Assembly (NCBI RefSeq): GCF_010122465.1
Contig: NZ_WLZY01000004.1
Span: 1 to 64,000, forward strand
Reading direction: 5' to 3'
DNA length: 64,000 bases
Source of the DNA: Phytoactinopolyspora mesophila
GTDB lineage: Bacteria; Actinomycetota; Actinomycetes; Jiangellales; Jiangellaceae
Shown here: piece after piece, positions 1 through 8,575 of the stretch
How the letters are laid out: each line of letters begins with the position of its first letter
Position numbering within the stretch: the first letter of the stretch is position 1
The notes under the pieces: model-generated
The model's database searches: none
The model's input: only the letters and a program-made list of their open reading frames with translations
Told to the model about the DNA's origin: nothing
Translations under genes and position numbers: made by a program

Positions 1-709
1 CGTTATCGTAACAAATCCCGGTCCGGCCAAGTGAGGCCCGCATGCCAAGCTGCTTCAGCTTCTTGCTGTAATTATCAGAAGTATATTGTGAGCCGCGGTC
101 TGAGTGAAAGATGCAGCTTTCTTCAAGATGGTGGTTACGCGCGGCCATATCAAGCGCTTCGGTGACCAATTCGGTGCGCATGTGATCGGCCATCGCGTAC
201 CCAATCACCTCTTTGTTGAAGCAATCGATGACGGTCGAGACATAGAGCCAGCCCTCCCACGTTCTCACGCACGTGATGTCCCCGACGAGCTTCACGCCGG
301 GTCGCTCGGCGCTGAAGTCGCGGTTCACCAGGTCCGGTGTCACCGGGTCGGTGTCGCCGCGGATCGTGGTGGTCTTGTACGGCCGTGGCTGGCACGGCAC
401 CAGGCCCAGCTCACGCATCAGGTCGCGGACCAGCTCCGCGCCGATCTGCTCGCCGCCGCGGACGAGCTCAACGTGGATGCGCCGGTATCCGTAGACGCCG
501 TCGTTGTAGTCAAACAACGCCTGGATCTTGACCGCAAGCTCCTCGCGCCGCCGCGCGGTCGCGCTCATCGGCCGGCCGCGCCAGTCATAAAACCCGGACT
601 TCGACACCTTCAACCACGTACACATCTTCTGAATGCTCGGAGCATCGGCCGAATCGCCGTCGGCGGCGGTGGCAGCACAACCAGCGATGAACTCGTACTT
701 CTCGCTCAC
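1..709 (-). CDS. IS3-family transposase OrfB (catalytic, DDE), partial
   Basis: This is the catalytic half of an IS3-type transposase and should carry out strand transfer of the element. The frame opens with a GTG at 709 that overlaps the OrfA stop in a GTGA arrangement, so it is either translationally coupled or made as an OrfAB fusion by frameshifting. Visible features are an HTH_21-like segment near YGYRRIHVEL, then a retroviral-integrase-type core with the first catalytic aspartate in VGDITCVRTWEGWLY and the second in FHSDRGSQYTS. The third catalytic residue (Glu) lies beyond the window start. No in-frame stop is seen over the 236 visible codons, so this part is intact as far as it goes. 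Confidence 0.85.
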   Translation of the reverse strand, partial: MSEKYEFIAGCAATAADGDSADAPSIQKMCTWLKVSKSGFYDWRGRPMSATARRREELAVKIQALFDYNDGVYGYRRIHVELVRGGEQIGAELVRDLMRELGLVPCQPRPYKTTTIRGDTDPVTPDLVNRDFSAERPGVKLVGDITCVRTWEGWLYVSTVIDCFNKEVIGYAMADHMRTELVTEALDMAARNHHLEESCIFHSDRGSQYTSDNYSKKLKQLGMRASLGRTGICYDN

Positions 710-996
710 CGTTGCTCCTGCGCGAAGTATGCTGCCGCTCGTTTTAGGAAGTTGTTCTCCATCTCCAGTTCACGGTTCTTCCGCTCAAGCTCTCGTAAAC
801 GAGCCCGCTCGGACATCTCCAACGCCGGCTCATCGCCAGCATGCGCCTGTCGATAAGCCTTACACCAATTATCCAGGGTGGTCTCACCCACCCCAATCTC
901 GCGAGCCACATCGACTATTCTCCGGTCGTTCTCGACCACCAACCGGGCCGCTTCCTCGCGGAACTCAGGCGTAAACCTGCCGTTCTTCCTAGCCAC
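706..996 (-). CDS. IS3-family transposase OrfA (DNA-binding)
   Basis: A 96-residue OrfA that binds the element ends. Residues 1-50 form an HTH_Tnp_1-type helix-turn-helix (RFTPEFREEAARLV ... VGETTLDNW), and residues 60-90 form a short coiled coil (RARLRELERKNRELEMENN) of the type that lets OrfA and OrfAB multimerise. The start is a GTG at 996 with a GGAGAGGAG ribosome binding site nine bases upstream. Its TGA stop overlaps the OrfB GTG. Length and order match IS3 family members. Confidence 0.88.
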   Translation of the reverse strand: MARKNGRFTPEFREEAARLVVENDRRIVDVAREIGVGETTLDNWCKAYRQAHAGDEPALEMSERARLRELERKNRELEMENNFLKRAAAYFAQEQR

Positions 997-1149: not shown

Positions 1150-1371
1150 TCAGGCCGCGAGGTCAACGGTCTGGGCATCGAGCCACTCCTCCACATCGGC
1201 CCAGCGGTAGCGCAGGTGGCGGCCGACCTTGAGGGCCTTGGGGCCGATGCCCCGATGGCGCCACTGGTACAGGGTGTTGTCCGGCACTCCGAGATACTCG
1301 GACAACTCCTCAGGGCTGGCGAGGGGACGACGGTCTCGGTGAGCGGCATTGTGGGGCGAAGCAGGCGGCAT
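1150..1371 (-). CDS. xis: Excisionase-like helix-turn-helix protein
   Basis: A 73-residue MerR/BldC-type DNA-binding domain, the family used as recombination directionality factors by actinobacterial integrative elements. The HTH spans roughly residues 17-65: LASPEELSEYLGVPDNTLYQW, a turn, then RHLRYRWADVEEWLD. I start it at the ATG at 1371 because the homologous region begins soon after; the longer upstream frame is arginine-rich and looks non-coding. It is divergent from the integrase gene beginning at 1740, whereas xis and int of many such elements are co-directional. The integrase is broken, so excision by this pair is probably lost. Confidence 0.7.
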   Translation of the reverse strand: MPPASPHNAAHRDRRPLASPEELSEYLGVPDNTLYQWRHRGIGPKALKVGRHLRYRWADVEEWLDAQTVDLAA

Positions 1372-1739: not shown

Positions 1740-2831
1740 ATGGCTGACGTCTACGACCGCTGGCACAAGAGCTATCCGAAGGAGGGCGATCCCGAATGCG
1801 CCGAGCACAAGGGAAAGGTCCCGACAAAGGGACACGGCAAGGGAAAACGCTGGCAGGTCCGCTACCGCGATCCGAGTGGTGAGCAGCGCAGCGCCAACTT
1901 CCACCGCAAGGTTGAGGCGGAGGCCGCCGCCAACGCGATCGAGAAGGATCTGCGGCAGGGGACGTACGTCGATCCCGACGCCGGAAAAGTCTTGCTGCGG
2001 ACGTACGCACGGCAGTGGCTGGACGCCGCGACGGCGGGCGTTGGCACGGTGGACGCCTACGAGGGAGTGGTGCGCAACCACATCGAGCCGCACCTCGGAA
2101 GCCGCGAGCTGCGCTCGCTCAACCGGCCTTCGCTCGTCCAGGCTTGGGTGCGGAAGCTCCAGGACGCAGGTCTGGAACCGTCCACCATCGGCTGGATCAG
2201 CTCCATACTCACCGCCATCCTCGATGCGGCCGTCGAGGATGGGCTGCTGCACCGGAACCCGTGCAAGTCCAGCTCGGTCAAGCTCCCCAAGGAGCCCAGG
2301 AAGAAGATCACGCCGTGGAGCCTGGAGCGGGTCCACGCAGTGATCGCCGGTCTGCCGGGCCGCTTCCAGTGCGGCGGGAAGCTGGCCTTCGGGTGCGGGC
2401 TGCGTCAGGGCGAGGTTCTCGGCGTCGCGGTCGAGCACCTGGACTTCAAGCAGCGTCTGGTGCGCGTGAACCGGCAGATCAAGCTGGTGCGCTCCACGAT
2501 GGTCTTCTCGCTGCCGAAGGGGGAGCGGGTGCGCACCGTCCCGATGCCCGACGAGCTGGCGAGGGCTCTCAAGGCCCACATGAAGGCGTACCCGCCGAGG
2601 GAGATCACCCTGCCGTGGGCCAAGCCGGACGGAGGTGAGCGCACGTTCCGGCTGCTGTTCACGACGGAACAGGGCAAGGCGTATCACCGGAGCGTGCTGA
2701 ATGAGGGCGACTGGAAGCGCGCCCTCGCCTCGGCCGGGGTGATCCCGCCGCGCGACAAAGGGGCGCCGCGCTTCGCCGCCGCTCCGGAGGACGGGATGCA
2801 CGCGCTCCGTCACACCTACGCCTCCGTGCTG
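1740..2831 (+). pseudogene. int: Tyrosine site-specific integrase, 5' part (interrupted)
   Basis: The N-terminal 364 residues of a phage/AICE-type tyrosine integrase. The ATG at 1740 follows a GAGGAGG site. An AP2-like arm-binding segment (WQVRYRDPSGEQRSANFHRK) is followed by a SAM-like core-binding domain (about 75-175) and the catalytic domain, with the first catalytic arginine at R222 (GLRQGE) and the HxxR box at H354/R357 (HALRHTYASVL). Immediately after the HxxR box the frame leaves the family: the nucleophile segment is missing and unrelated sequence follows to a stop at 2952-2954. The missing part is found at 6681, so the gene was split by an insertion and is inactive unless that element excises. 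Confidence 0.88.
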
Positions 2832-3008
2832 CAAATGGGCAGAATTGCATCTGATGCATCATTCGGCAGTTTGTGTGAACGTCGTTTAGCTGGGACTCGA
2901 GGTCAATGGGCCGCTGGTGGGAGTCGCTTGATGATGTGTCGACACGCGGTGTGAGCTGCGCATTCCCGGTTCCTGTTGCTGTTGATGCAACTATGTGTCA
3001 TCCATTTC

Positions 3009-3042
3009 TGTTGCATTGGGTGTTGATTTGTTGCATTCGGTG
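3009..3042 (+). repeat. Direct repeat TGTTGCATTxGGTG in transposon left end
   Basis: Two copies of TGTTGCATT-(G/C)-GGTG start at 3009 and 3029, twenty bases apart, in the AT-richer leader (2832-3062) upstream of the first transposon gene. The spacing is close to two helical turns. They could be recombinase arm-binding sites or an operator for the element's own HTH protein; the sequence shows only the repeat. Confidence 0.5.
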
Positions 3043-3062
3043 CTGTCCTTGGAGGGTCCTGG

Positions 3063-4151
3063 ATGACCGAGGCGCGAACGGCGGGGTCGGCGGCGTTGGT
3101 GCTGGTCGATGGCGCGACGCCGCTGCGGGTTGAGCCGGCGCTGTTCGACTCGATGCTAAAGGGGTGGCGGCTGCAGCAGTCCAGCCGACGGCTGAGCGGG
3201 CCGCTGATCGATGGCCGGGAACGGCTCGTGCGTCGGTTCGCCGAGTTCACCGGTGCCTGGCCATGGCAGTGGACACCGGAGCAGGCGGAGGCGTGGATCG
3301 CCTCGGGTGGGTGGGCGCACTCGACGGTGCGGTCGTATCAGGGCGCGCTGGGCATGTTCCTGGGATATGTGTGTGATCCGCGGTATGGCTGGATCGCCGA
3401 GTGCGAGCAGCAGGTCGGGGCCCGTCCGGTGCAGGTGTGTCACGAGGACAACACCGTGTCGCACGTGGCCGATCACGAGGGCCGTGCGGAGCGTCGCCCG
3501 CTGACCCGTGCTGAGCTGCAGGCGTTCTTCGATGCCGCCGACGACCGGGTGGAGCAGGCGGCAGGTGCGCGGCGCAAGGGGTGGCTGGCGACGTTTCGGG
3601 ACGCGACGTTGTTCAAGGTCGTCTACGGTTGGGGACTTCGTCGCCGGGAGACGGCGATGCTGGACATGGCCGACTTCACGGTCAACCCGGCGGCGCCGGA
3701 GCTGGGCCGGCTTGGTGTGGTGCATGTGCGCTACGGCAAGGCGATGAAGGGCAGCCCACCGCGGCGCAGAGCGGTGGCCACGCTGATGCCGTGGACGGCC
3801 GAGGCGCTGGAGCAGTACCTGGAGCAGGTGCGGCCCCGCTACGGCTGCGAGCGGCATCCGGCGGTGTGGCTGACCGAACGTGACGGGCGGATCTCGACAC
3901 GGCAGATCGATGACCGCTTCGCCCAGTTCCGACGGCTGGCCGACCTTCCGGATGATCTTTCCGTTCACTCGCTGCGCCACTCATACGTCTCCCATCTGAT
4001 CGAGGACGGGGTCGATCCGCTGTTCGTGCAACAGCAGGTGGGACATTCGTGGGCGTCGACGACCGCGGCGTACACGACGGTCGGCACCGACGCACGCAAT
4101 CGGATGCTCAAGCAGGCGCTGGGTCGTGTCTACGGTCCGGATCGGGGATGA
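3063..4151 (+). CDS. Tyrosine recombinase of nested transposon (TnpA-like)
   Basis: A 362-residue integrase-family recombinase that should cut and rejoin the transposon ends. Residues 40-125 form the SAM-like core-binding domain and 155-350 the catalytic domain. All catalytic positions are visible: R193 in GWGLRRRETAML, a lysine in the GKAMKGSPPRRR beta hairpin, H302/R305 in HSLRHSYVSHLI, H328 in GHSWAS, and nucleophile Y337 in TTAAYTTV. The ATG at 3063 is preceded by GGAGGGTCCTGG. Its stop overlaps the next gene's ATG. Nothing is truncated, so the enzyme looks active. Family assignment is firm; the TnpA comparison is based on length and gene context. Confidence 0.9.
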   Translation: MTEARTAGSAALVLVDGATPLRVEPALFDSMLKGWRLQQSSRRLSGPLIDGRERLVRRFAEFTGAWPWQWTPEQAEAWIASGGWAHSTVRSYQGALGMFLGYVCDPRYGWIAECEQQVGARPVQVCHEDNTVSHVADHEGRAERRPLTRAELQAFFDAADDRVEQAAGARRKGWLATFRDATLFKVVYGWGLRRRETAMLDMADFTVNPAAPELGRLGVVHVRYGKAMKGSPPRRRAVATLMPWTAEALEQYLEQVRPRYGCERHPAVWLTERDGRISTRQIDDRFAQFRRLADLPDDLSVHSLRHSYVSHLIEDGVDPLFVQQQVGHSWASTTAAYTTVGTDARNRMLKQALGRVYGPDRG

Positions 4152-4489
4152 TGCCCAGCATGGCGAACAAGACCGGGTATGTGTGGCATCTACGCAGGGT
4201 GATGGCCGATCGTGGCATGTTCCAAACGACCGACCTGATCGCCCCGCTGGCCGAACGGGGCGCAAAGTTGTCCAGGGAACAGGTCTACCGGCTGGTGACG
4301 GGCACGCCGGAGAGACTCAACCTGGCCGTGCTGGCCGCGTTGTGCGACATTCTCGACTGCTCCGTCGGCGACCTGATCGAACCGAGGACCTCGGCGACGC
4401 CCACGTCGGCGAAGACGTCGTCTTCTCCGGAGCCGCCCGAGCGGCTGCGGCCTCGCCGCGCCCGGATCCTGCCTGAGCCCGGACAGTAG
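4148..4489 (+). CDS. Small Cro/C1-type helix-turn-helix protein of transposon
   Basis: A 113-residue protein with an XRE-type DNA-binding domain across residues 5-75: VWHLRRVMADRGMF, then LSREQVYRLVTG and LAVLAALCDILDCSVGDLI, the last resembling HTH_26 regulators. The remainder is a Pro/Ser/Arg-rich tail. The ATG at 4148 overlaps the recombinase stop as ATGA; an ATG at 4160 is a possible alternative. Sitting between the two recombinase genes, it could act as an accessory or regulatory factor like Tn554 TnpC, which orients and boosts transposition. That role is inferred from position only. Confidence 0.75.
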   Translation: MMPSMANKTGYVWHLRRVMADRGMFQTTDLIAPLAERGAKLSREQVYRLVTGTPERLNLAVLAALCDILDCSVGDLIEPRTSATPTSAKTSSSPEPPERLRPRRARILPEPGQ

Positions 4490-4493
4490 AGTC

Positions 4494-6599
4494 GTGACCG
4501 GCATGGTGGTGTGTGCAGCCGGGCATCAGATGCCTGCCGGGCCGGACCGTGTCTGTTTCACCTGCCGCCGGGATGAGGTCATCGCTTGCGCCAGGGCCGT
4601 GGAGACGTCACTGTCCGGCGACGACGTGGCCGCGGCGGTGGACACGGTGGCCACCAACCCCGCGGTGTGGCGTTTCCTGGCCGAGGCGTTCGCCCGTGAT
4701 CCGGACGCGCTCGCCCACGCAGCGCCACCCGTCGTTGGGCGGCTGGTGACCGAGCTGATCGCCCGCGGTTCCACCGTCATGACGGTGCCGACGTGCGTGA
4801 CTTGTGGGGTGAGCGGACGGCCATTGACCGTCACCGACGACGGCGGCATGTGCAAACGATGCGCAGCACGGCGCAACCCGGCGGCCTGCTCCCACTGCGG
4901 CATCGTCAAACCGGTCGCCGGGCGCACCAACAGCGGCGGGCCGATCTGCGAACCGTGCCGCCGTCACCAGCGAGGACACCGTCCATGCGGTGTGTGCGGT
5001 AATACCACCTCGATCGCGGTACGAGCCCGCGGTGACCAACCGGACATCTGCGTCAACTGCTACCGCAGACCTGAGGCCACCTGCCACGTCTGCCGACGAC
5101 GACGGCCGTGCAGCTTCGCCGACACCGACCGACCGATCTGCGCGTCGTGCTCACCCCGAGCCACGGCCATCTGCGCACGCTGCGGCGCCCATCGCCCACC
5201 CGCGGCGCGCTGGGACGAAGGGCCGATCTGCGACACCTGCTACACCGCCGCGCTACGCCACCGTGGACGCTGCGCGGTCTGCGGGGACCAGCGCCGCCTC
5301 GTCGCTCCGCCCGGGCCGGAGGCCACGACCTGCGCCGACTGCGCCGGAGTGCCCGTCGTGCACGCCTGCATCGACTGCGGGCTGGAGGACAAACTCTACG
5401 AGAAAGACCGCTGCGCCCGGTGCAGCCTGCGTCGCCGGGCCACCGAGCTGCTCTCCGGCGCCTCCGGGCAGGTCCCAGCCGAGCTGAACGGGGTGCTCGA
5501 GGCCATCTGCGCGGCCCGCACACCACGCGCGGCGCTGAACTGGCTACGCCAGGGCGCCGCCGCCGCTGTCCTGACCGAACTCGTCTCCGGACAACTCCAG
5601 CTCACACACGAGGCGTTGGACGCACACCCACATCCGAAGGCGGCCGACTATCTGCGACACATGCTCGTCGCCAGTGGCGCGCTCGAGCCCCGCGACGAGG
5701 CCCTGGCCCGCACCGAACGCTGGCTCACCGACCTGCTCGCCACTATCGACGACAACGAGTACCGTCGGCTCGTCCAAGCCTTCGCAGCCTGGCAGGTCAT
5801 GCGACGGCTACGCCGTCACGCCGAGACCCGCCCAGCGCCTCGGACCTACACCGCCCACGCCAAACTGCGCATCAAGGTCGCCACCGAGTTCCTCACCTGG
5901 CTCACAGCACACGACACCACCCTGGCCGAGGCCCGCCAAACCGACATCGACCAGTGGCTGGCCACCAGCCCGCGCGCCTGCCACGTGCGAGACTTCCTCA
6001 CCTGGGCCACCGAGCGGCGTCACTGCCCGGCCTTCACCATCCCGGCGCCACAACGCTTCACCGGCACCGCCACCGATTCCGACCAACGCTGGGCACACCT
6101 CGCTCGACTGCTCCACGACGACGAACTCGCCCTCGTCGACCGAGTCGCCGGCTGCTTCCTACTGCTGTTCGCCCAGCCACAATCCCGGATCGCGGTCATG
6201 ACCACCGACCAGATCACCCAGCACGACAACGAGGTGTTCGTCCGCTTCGGCCAGCACGACGTGCCCGTCCCCGAACCACTCGACACGCTACTGCTCCAGC
6301 TCATCGCCAACGGCAAGTCCTACACCGGGATCGGATCACCCGCCGACACCCAATGGCTGTTCCCCGGCGGCATGCCCGGACGACCCATCACCGCATCACG
6401 ACTCGCCGAACGCCTCCGCGCTGTGGGCATCTCCACCCAAGCCGGACGCCGAGCCACCCTGATCGACCTCGCCGCCAAGCTCCCCGCCGCCGTCCTCGCC
6501 GACCTGCTCGGCCTGCACCGCGCCACGGCCGTGAAATGGACCGGACAAGCCGGCGGCGGCTGGAACCGCTACGCCGCCGAGATCGCCCGCACCCGCTAG
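4494..6599 (+). CDS. Zinc-motif-rich recombinase-like protein (TnpB-like)
   Basis: A 701-residue protein in two halves. Residues 1-315 contain about fifteen CxxC motifs (for example CFTC, CVTC, CKRC, CSHC, CGVC, CHVC, CARC, CIDC), suggesting a chain of zinc ribbons. Residues 420-700 resemble a phage-integrase core: a SAM-like domain, an arginine box at R565 (QSRIAVMTTDQI), then RRATLIDLAAKLPAAVLADLL where a canonical enzyme has HxxR, and a terminal Y693 (WNRYAAE). The usual catalytic His residues are not evident, so it may be catalytically weak or act as a partner of the 362-residue recombinase. The GTG start at 4494 lies four bases after the HTH stop. Confidence 0.8.
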   Translation: MTGMVVCAAGHQMPAGPDRVCFTCRRDEVIACARAVETSLSGDDVAAAVDTVATNPAVWRFLAEAFARDPDALAHAAPPVVGRLVTELIARGSTVMTVPTCVTCGVSGRPLTVTDDGGMCKRCAARRNPAACSHCGIVKPVAGRTNSGGPICEPCRRHQRGHRPCGVCGNTTSIAVRARGDQPDICVNCYRRPEATCHVCRRRRPCSFADTDRPICASCSPRATAICARCGAHRPPAARWDEGPICDTCYTAALRHRGRCAVCGDQRRLVAPPGPEATTCADCAGVPVVHACIDCGLEDKLYEKDRCARCSLRRRATELLSGASGQVPAELNGVLEAICAARTPRAALNWLRQGAAAAVLTELVSGQLQLTHEALDAHPHPKAADYLRHMLVASGALEPRDEALARTERWLTDLLATIDDNEYRRLVQAFAAWQVMRRLRRHAETRPAPRTYTAHAKLRIKVATEFLTWLTAHDTTLAEARQTDIDQWLATSPRACHVRDFLTWATERRHCPAFTIPAPQRFTGTATDSDQRWAHLARLLHDDELALVDRVAGCFLLLFAQPQSRIAVMTTDQITQHDNEVFVRFGQHDVPVPEPLDTLLLQLIANGKSYTGIGSPADTQWLFPGGMPGRPITASRLAERLRAVGISTQAGRRATLIDLAAKLPAAVLADLLGLHRATAVKWTGQAGGGWNRYAAEIARTR

Positions 6600-6680
6600 A
6601 AGCCACCCACAATCACCAACCATGCGAATAGCCCTCACCCGCCAGGACCCGTCCACCTACTCACACGAGCCGAAACATTG

Positions 6681-7013
6681 CTCTCTACCGGTTTCGACGC
6701 GGGAGAGACGATCAAGGCGCTCGCCGAGTACCTCGGGCATTCCGACCCCGGCTTCACGCTGCGCACGTATACGCATCTGATGCCGGCGAGCGAGTCCCGG
6801 ACGCGGAGGGCGATCGACGCCGCGTTTGTCTCTGGGGGATCCGAGGGCTCGGGCGAGGGGAATCCGTGGCCGTGTGCACTGCTTGTGCACTGGCCGCCTG
6901 ATCCGGGGCCGGAGGCGCAGCCAGGGTGGGGTCGCGCTCGCGGCGTCTGTATAGGTCAGACGGGATGCGGGCGGGTCAGGAGGCGTGCAGCAGGGCGTCG
7001 TTGCGCCATTTGA
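6681..7013 (+). pseudogene. int: Tyrosine integrase, 3' part with nucleophile tyrosine
   Basis: The missing C-terminus of the integrase that begins at 1740. It contains IKALAEYLGHSDPGFTL and then the nucleophile region LRTYTHLMPASESRTRRA, which normally follows directly after HALRHTYASVL. It has no start of its own other than a chance TTG at the junction. The frame runs to a stop at 7011-7013; the last 60 or so codons are proline/glycine-rich and need not be part of the ancestral protein. Restored, the enzyme would be about 475 residues. Confidence 0.85.
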
Positions 7014-8485: not shown

Positions 8486-8573
8486 AAATGATCATGTTTG
8501 GTGGGTTTCCTCGTGCAATGCCATGCCTACAGACCTATTGAGGCACGAGAACACAAACCAAACATGATCATTT
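8486..8573. repeat. 88-base palindromic repeat, copy 1
   Basis: An imperfect inverted repeat with 31-base arms (8486-8516 and 8543-8573) matching at 27 of 31 positions, starting AAATGATCATGTTTGGT. The 26-base loop contains CCATGCCT and CCTATTGA. It begins directly after the stop codon of the response regulator gene (8576) and precedes the membrane-protein gene, so as RNA it could act as a terminator or processing hairpin. A closely related copy lies at 12508-12595. Confidence 0.85.
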
Positions 8574-8575
8574 AG

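What the first reader, a model, noticed from the sequence alone, without database searches (positions are those of the whole stretch)
1740..7013. Integrase gene split by a complete tyrosine-recombinase transposon
The two halves of an integrase (1740-2831 and 6681-7013) join in the same frame across a 3.85 kb insertion. The junction gives HALRHTYASVL followed by LSTGFDAGETIKALAEYLGH, which is what an intact integrase would read. This is a mobile element inside the recombinase gene of another mobile element, and excision would restore the outer integrase. That makes the outer element switchable in principle.
Basis: partly seen in the sequence, partly recalled or inferred. Interest (0 to 1): 0.75.

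Follow-up and report, generated by a model that had tools for sequence, protein, structure and literature searches.

The report
Transposon that homes to integrase genes
A small transposon sits inside the gene for another mobile element's integrase, and its relatives across Actinomycetota insert at exactly the same codon of unrelated integrase genes, so it appears to be a parasite specialised on the DNA that encodes the integrase catalytic motif.

Summary
The insertion is real. It carries a tyrosine recombinase, an HTH protein and a 701-aa zinc-ribbon protein. The larger finding is where this transposon goes. In 12 of 14 insertions of its clade, in eight genomes, it lies in a tyrosine-recombinase gene, in one orientation, exactly 8 codons + 1 base after the arginine of the catalytic HxLRH box. 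All three copies in this genome are among them. The other two are a tandem repeat resembling the target DNA and one unexplained site. A sister clade on plasmids inserts just past the nucleophile-tyrosine codon of recombinase genes (12 of 13 junctions). There is no target duplication, and the transposon's own recombinase gene carries the target. This is a Tn554-like actinobacterial transposon whose target is the DNA of an integrase catalytic motif; I found no description of such targeting. Precise excision would restore the frame, but excision was not shown, and related elements may copy out without leaving an empty site. 'Switchable' is therefore unproven.

The parts
1..996 (-). IS3-type insertion sequence at the contig end (OrfA 706-996, HTH_Tnp_1); bounds what can be seen of the outer element
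1150..1371 (-). HTH_17 excisionase-like gene of the outer element, divergent from the integrase
   Evidence: Pfam HTH_17 7.9e-14; same layout in homologue L073
1740..2832 (+). Outer tyrosine integrase, 5' part, up to the first base of the codon after RHTYASVL
   Evidence: Pfam Phage_integrase 1.7e-7, alignment ends at profile position 140 of 172
2796..2832 (+). Occupied target: DNA encoding MHALRHTYASVL plus one base
   Evidence: profile of 14 targets; best site in the 64 kb window, both strands
2833..6693 (+). Inner transposon, 3,861 bp, no target duplication
   Evidence: junction comparison
2833..2860 (+). Left end with GCATCTGATGC palindrome (2847-2857), conserved across the clade
3063..4151 (+). 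TnpA-like tyrosine recombinase, 362 aa, HSLRH box and YTT intact
   Evidence: Pfam Phage_integrase 2.1e-19; XerC/D-like
3963..3999 (+). Copy of the target motif inside the transposon's own tnpA (second best site in the window)
   Evidence: 25.7 bits against 12.7 for the next site
4148..4489 (+). HTH_26 (Cro/C1-type) DNA-binding protein, 113 aa
   Evidence: Pfam 1.9e-18
4494..6599 (+). TnpB-like protein, 701 aa: CxxC zinc-ribbon array followed by an atypical tyrosine-recombinase-like C-terminal part
   Evidence: alignment A1; model with weak Foldseek match to Cre and LIM domains
6653..6693 (+). Right end ...ACATTGCTCTCTACCGGTT
   Evidence: shared with C21 and far end of C4 in the same genome
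6694..7013 (+). Outer integrase, 3' part, with LGH and nucleophile-tyrosine region (TLRTYTHLMP)
   Evidence: matches 13 uninterrupted homologues

Best explanation
The inner element is a site-directed transposon of the Tn554-like actinobacterial kind whose target is the DNA encoding the catalytic box II (HxLRHT..A..L) of tyrosine-recombinase genes. Shown: clade-wide insertion at one codon, in one orientation, with no target duplication; a sister clade uses the nucleophile-tyrosine codon instead. Inferred: TnpA, with the zinc-ribbon TnpB helping to read an extended target of about 35 bp, joins a circular or copied-out form of the element to the motif. Since the motif is conserved in DNA as well as protein in GC-rich genomes, every genome offers many sites, mostly in other mobile elements. 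The insertion cuts off the catalytic tyrosine and so should inactivate the host integrase, locking the outer element in place. Precise excision, if it occurs, would restore it.
For: Own genome: all three copies (C4 window; C12 with C4-end; C19 with C21) lie in tyrosine-recombinase genes at the identical codon. The genome has 19 Phage_integrase hits in 6.5 Mb, three of them interrupted 5' halves; chance for one insertion at that codon and orientation in one of about 17 such genes is roughly 1e-6 (my estimate). Clade: L012, L015, L016, L017, L018, L022, G145 and two in G126 show the same codon. Pfam PF00589 alignment of the upstream fragments stops at profile position 137-140 in 9 of 10 unfused cases. 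Where both sides are known, joining them gives an open recombinase across the site; L017 so joined matches PF00589 113-170 without a break. A target profile with leave-one-out ranks 13 of 14 sites among the top 17 of 127,928 window positions, 11 of them in the top 2. Sister clade: 12 of 13 junctions directly after the Tyr motif; Pfam matches of five of those genes end at 166-170. TnpA tree: the two target classes fall in separate fully supported clades; label changes as few as observed in 0 of 200 shuffles.
Against: L014 sits in a non-integrase tandem repeat (resembling the target DNA) and L013 in a site with no clear resemblance, so the target is a DNA sequence and not strictly integrases. 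Several loci are short MAG contigs. Two of the three own-genome insertions are pieced together from contig ends. No orthologous empty site was found; the uninterrupted homologues of the outer integrase are only about 41-46% identical. Mobility was not observed. Some sister-clade junctions (L031, L096, L097) are near-identical elements and not fully independent.
Confidence: 0.86

Rival explanations
1. Chance: a promiscuous transposon happened to land in an integrase gene, and mobile genes tolerate insertions so such landings survive.
For: Integrase genes are dispensable, so survivorship favours them; one clade member sits in a tandem repeat and one at an unrecognised site.
Against: Same codon, same orientation and same base offset in 12 of 14 insertions across many different recombinases; the tandem-repeat exception still carries the CTGCGGCACACC motif.
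Confidence: 0.03
2. A reversible integrase switch: the transposon is retained because its excision turns the outer element back on.
For: No target duplication and restored frame on precise removal in the window, C12/C4-end, C19/C21, L017 and G126a.
Against: No empty site, circle or regulated excision seen; related strand-biased elements do not regenerate an empty site (PMC10214605); two own-genome copies are identical over the ends that can be compared, which fits copying rather than switching.
Confidence: 0.1
3. Exchange of recombinase halves: the element marks places where recombinase 3' halves are swapped between integrases, so the two flanking halves need not come from one gene.
For: In L013 the tnpA itself is fused close to its target codon to the 3' half of another integrase; box II is a natural breakpoint.
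Against: In the window, L017 and G126a the two halves fit one family; in C19/C21 the right half is followed by the TnpB and TnpC genes expected after the left half. L013 is a MAG contig lacking one codon at the joint.
Confidence: 0.08

Closest known systems
Tn554 (Staphylococcus), tnpA-tnpB-tnpC
   Same: One ordinary and one very long tyrosine recombinase in tandem, high target specificity, no target duplication.
   Different: An HTH_26 protein where TnpC would be; the target is a motif found in many genes, not one unique site; the right-end bases are constant, not a 6-bp sequence brought from the donor; no cargo.
Actinobacterial Tn554-related class of PMC3414803, long/short recombinase pairs without TnpC (Famint36/Famint41)
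   Same: Host range (Rhodococcus, Streptomyces, Arthrobacter plasmids), a recombinase of about 350 aa beside one of 611-828 aa, no TnpC.
   Different: That paper gives no target rule beyond suggesting several similar attB sites; direct sequence membership was not tested here.
[quoted passage not shown]
   Same: Two tyrosine recombinases plus small partners, imperfect inverted ends, target specificity.
   Different: Gammaproteobacteria, four core genes, 6-bp footprint; no integrase-motif targeting found in that paper.
Self-splitting archaeal integrases (SSV type)
   Same: An integrase gene ends up in two halves.
   Different: There the element's own integrase is split by its own integration; here a different element's integrase is the target. 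Recalled from general knowledge, not tested.

Membership tests
Tn554 family | Tandem of an ordinary and a long tyrosine recombinase, same strand | tested here: inconclusive
   TnpA (362 aa) is a Phage_integrase member; the 701-aa partner has no Pfam hit and only a weak structural match to Cre
Tn554 family | TnpC (DUF6262-type) third gene | tested here: not met
   third gene is HTH_26; DUF6262 does occur in the Tn554-like element that is itself interrupted at C19/C21
Tn554 family | No target-site duplication | tested here: met
   L014 with exact native sequence, and homologues for window and L017
Tn554 family | 6-bp core carried from the donor site at one end | tested here: not met
   six right junctions all read CC[AG]GT[TA] while left flanks vary
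Tn554 family | Dependence of transposition on both TnpA and TnpB | not testable with these tools
   needs a transposition assay
Actinobacterial Tn554-related class (PMC3414803) | Short (~350 aa) and long (611-828 aa) gene pair without TnpC | tested here: met
   sizes 362 and 701 aa, no DUF6262; 145 plasmid records hold TnpA relatives at E<=1e-80
Actinobacterial Tn554-related class (PMC3414803) | Sequence membership in Famint36/41 | not tested
   family sequences were not at hand
RIT elements | Three tyrosine recombinases in tandem | tested here: not met
   middle gene is an HTH protein

The most novel reading that the evidence does not exclude
The family is a set of motif-homing transposons: each clade reads DNA that encodes one conserved protein motif (integrase box II, integrase tyrosine box, ArdC, others), with the zinc-ribbon array of TnpB acting as an exchangeable target reader. 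The window clade is thereby a dedicated hyperparasite that disables other elements' integrases and, since its own tnpA carries the target, limits itself.
Probability: 0.3. Interest if true: 0.82.

Novelty: new variant of a known kind. Interest (0 to 1): 0.66.

Why it matters
A transposon that uses the coding sequence of an integrase active site as its address has many sites in most genomes, nearly all in other mobile DNA. It would explain recurrent broken integrases in actinobacterial elements, give a natural brake on their mobility, and offer a tractable model of how a tyrosine-recombinase system changes its target between clades, since box II and the tyrosine box are used by sister clades.

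Tried and rejected
IMG/VR search with TnpA found no relatives. Phage records hold only distant integrases. No close uninterrupted orthologue of the outer integrase or of the C12 integrase was found in the same family. The donor-derived 6-bp footprint of Tn554/SEs was looked for and rejected because right-end bases are constant. An RNA feature at the locus (no Rfam match) and a tRNA site were rejected. The truncated integrase on contig C16 (L119) was checked as a fourth insertion and rejected: it lacks the element. The TnpB model is of modest confidence (pLDDT 71, pTM 0.32), so the Cre match is only suggestive.

Full report
What is there. The window begins at the end of contig C4 of a 6.5-Mb actinobacterial genome. 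An integrase starts at 1740 and runs in frame into foreign DNA after RHTYASVL; its 3' part, with the LGH and TYTHL motifs, runs to 7013. Between them lie a 362-aa tyrosine recombinase (TnpA-like), a 113-aa Cro/C1-type HTH protein and a 701-aa protein (TnpB-like) with an array of CxxC zinc ribbons. The 701-aa protein has no Pfam match; a model of modest confidence matches Cre-type recombinases and LIM zinc domains weakly.

Ends. L014, inserted in a 36-bp tandem repeat, gives the native target exactly: CCTGCCCG^TACCCC became CCTGCCCG|AAGTGGGC ... CTACCAGTT|TACCCC, so nothing is duplicated. By the same rule the element here is 2833-6693. Thirteen uninterrupted homologues of the outer integrase read ASVLLDAGE or a close variant, which is what the two halves give when joined at these ends.

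Target rule. The own genome holds copies broken at contig ends: C12, C19, C21 and the far end of C4. Each flank is a tyrosine recombinase cut at the same place: RHTAACLW|, RHSHATEL|, and right halves starting one codon later. C19 with C21 make up a Tn554-like TnpA followed by its TnpB and a DUF6262 TnpC; C12 and C4-end would be the two halves of another integrase (inferred pairing). Relatives with 65-75% TnpA identity from other Actinomycetota show the same: L012, L015, L016, L017, L018, L022, G145, and two sites in G126. In all of these the element's left end follows the R of the HxxRH box by eight codons plus one base, with tnpA pointing the same way as the target gene. Pfam alignments of the upstream fragments stop at PF00589 position 137-140 in nine of ten unfused cases; G145 aligns only in its earlier part. 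The exceptions are L014 (not an integrase, but the DNA carries CTGCGGCACACC) and L013 (no clear match). A position profile of the targets finds only two strong sites in the 64-kb window: the occupied one and the transposon's own tnpA.

Sister clade. Plasmid elements with about 53% TnpA identity and the same three-gene order sit elsewhere: just past the nucleophile-tyrosine codon of recombinase genes in 12 of 13 junctions (L029, L031, L033, L092-L099, L101); L030 is in an IS3-like transposase with similar DNA, recognised by eye. Pfam matches of five such genes end at position 166-170. In the TnpA tree box-II and tyrosine-box elements form separate, fully supported clades. More distant members sit at other conserved coding motifs, such as ArdC-like genes (seen, named by eye, not systematically tested).

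Mechanism. Shown: fixed target, fixed orientation, no duplication, clade-specific target. Inferred: TnpA cuts and joins; TnpB's zinc ribbons extend target reading, since the conserved bases reach about 35 bp from the junction, further than the roughly 13-bp core arm typical of tyrosine recombinases (general knowledge). The host integrase loses its catalytic tyrosine and should be dead. Two own-genome copies are identical over all bases that can be compared at both ends, suggesting recent spread. Reversal by excision is possible in sequence terms but unproven; related strand-biased elements do not yield empty sites (PMC10214605).

Comparison. The element works like Tn554 and fits the actinobacterial long/short recombinase class of PMC3414803 in layout, but it lacks TnpC and the donor-derived 6-bp core, so I do not file it as a member of the Tn554 family in the strict sense. 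Literature searches and the papers read gave no description of transposons targeting integrase catalytic-motif DNA; the library holds only open-licence papers, so this is not proof of novelty.

Verdict. The clade-wide targeting of the integrase active-site codons is the real finding.

Noticed in passing
L013 1-1500: A relative's tnpA is fused, close to its own target codon (RHSYVSHL|NAGVSLETIRRRLGH), to the 3' half of another integrase; could be recombination at the self target or a MAG artefact.
   Followed up: partly
L019, L021, L028 upstream of tnpA: Elements of a third clade sit at the start of a conserved ArdC-like 'N.LLI.AQRP.AT.VAG.RTW' region, opposite strand.
   Followed up: partly
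L024 and L036 upstream of tnpA: Two further relatives lie after or near a conserved GGHYDHLH motif of peptidase-like genes.
   Followed up: no
L062 and L067 (G145): Two near-identical copies of a distant relative follow 'GLQLVDAL..QW..YR'-type sequence, apparently the C-terminus of a histidine-kinase-like ATPase.
   Followed up: no
L032 and L102 upstream of tnpA: Two plasmid relatives both follow 'AGAAINA.TH..IDR..LLW[DN]P', a conserved hypothetical protein.
   Followed up: no
window 8486-8575: A long inverted repeat (AAATGATCATGTTTGGT ... ACCAAACATGATCATTT) between two genes.
   Followed up: no
G000 contigs C4, C12, C19, C21: Contig ends coincide with copies of this transposon, so the assembly is broken by it.
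   Followed up: yes
L119 (G000 C16): An integrase beside a replication-initiator-like gene is truncated shortly after HDARHTSATVLLLLGGP without this element.
   Followed up: partly
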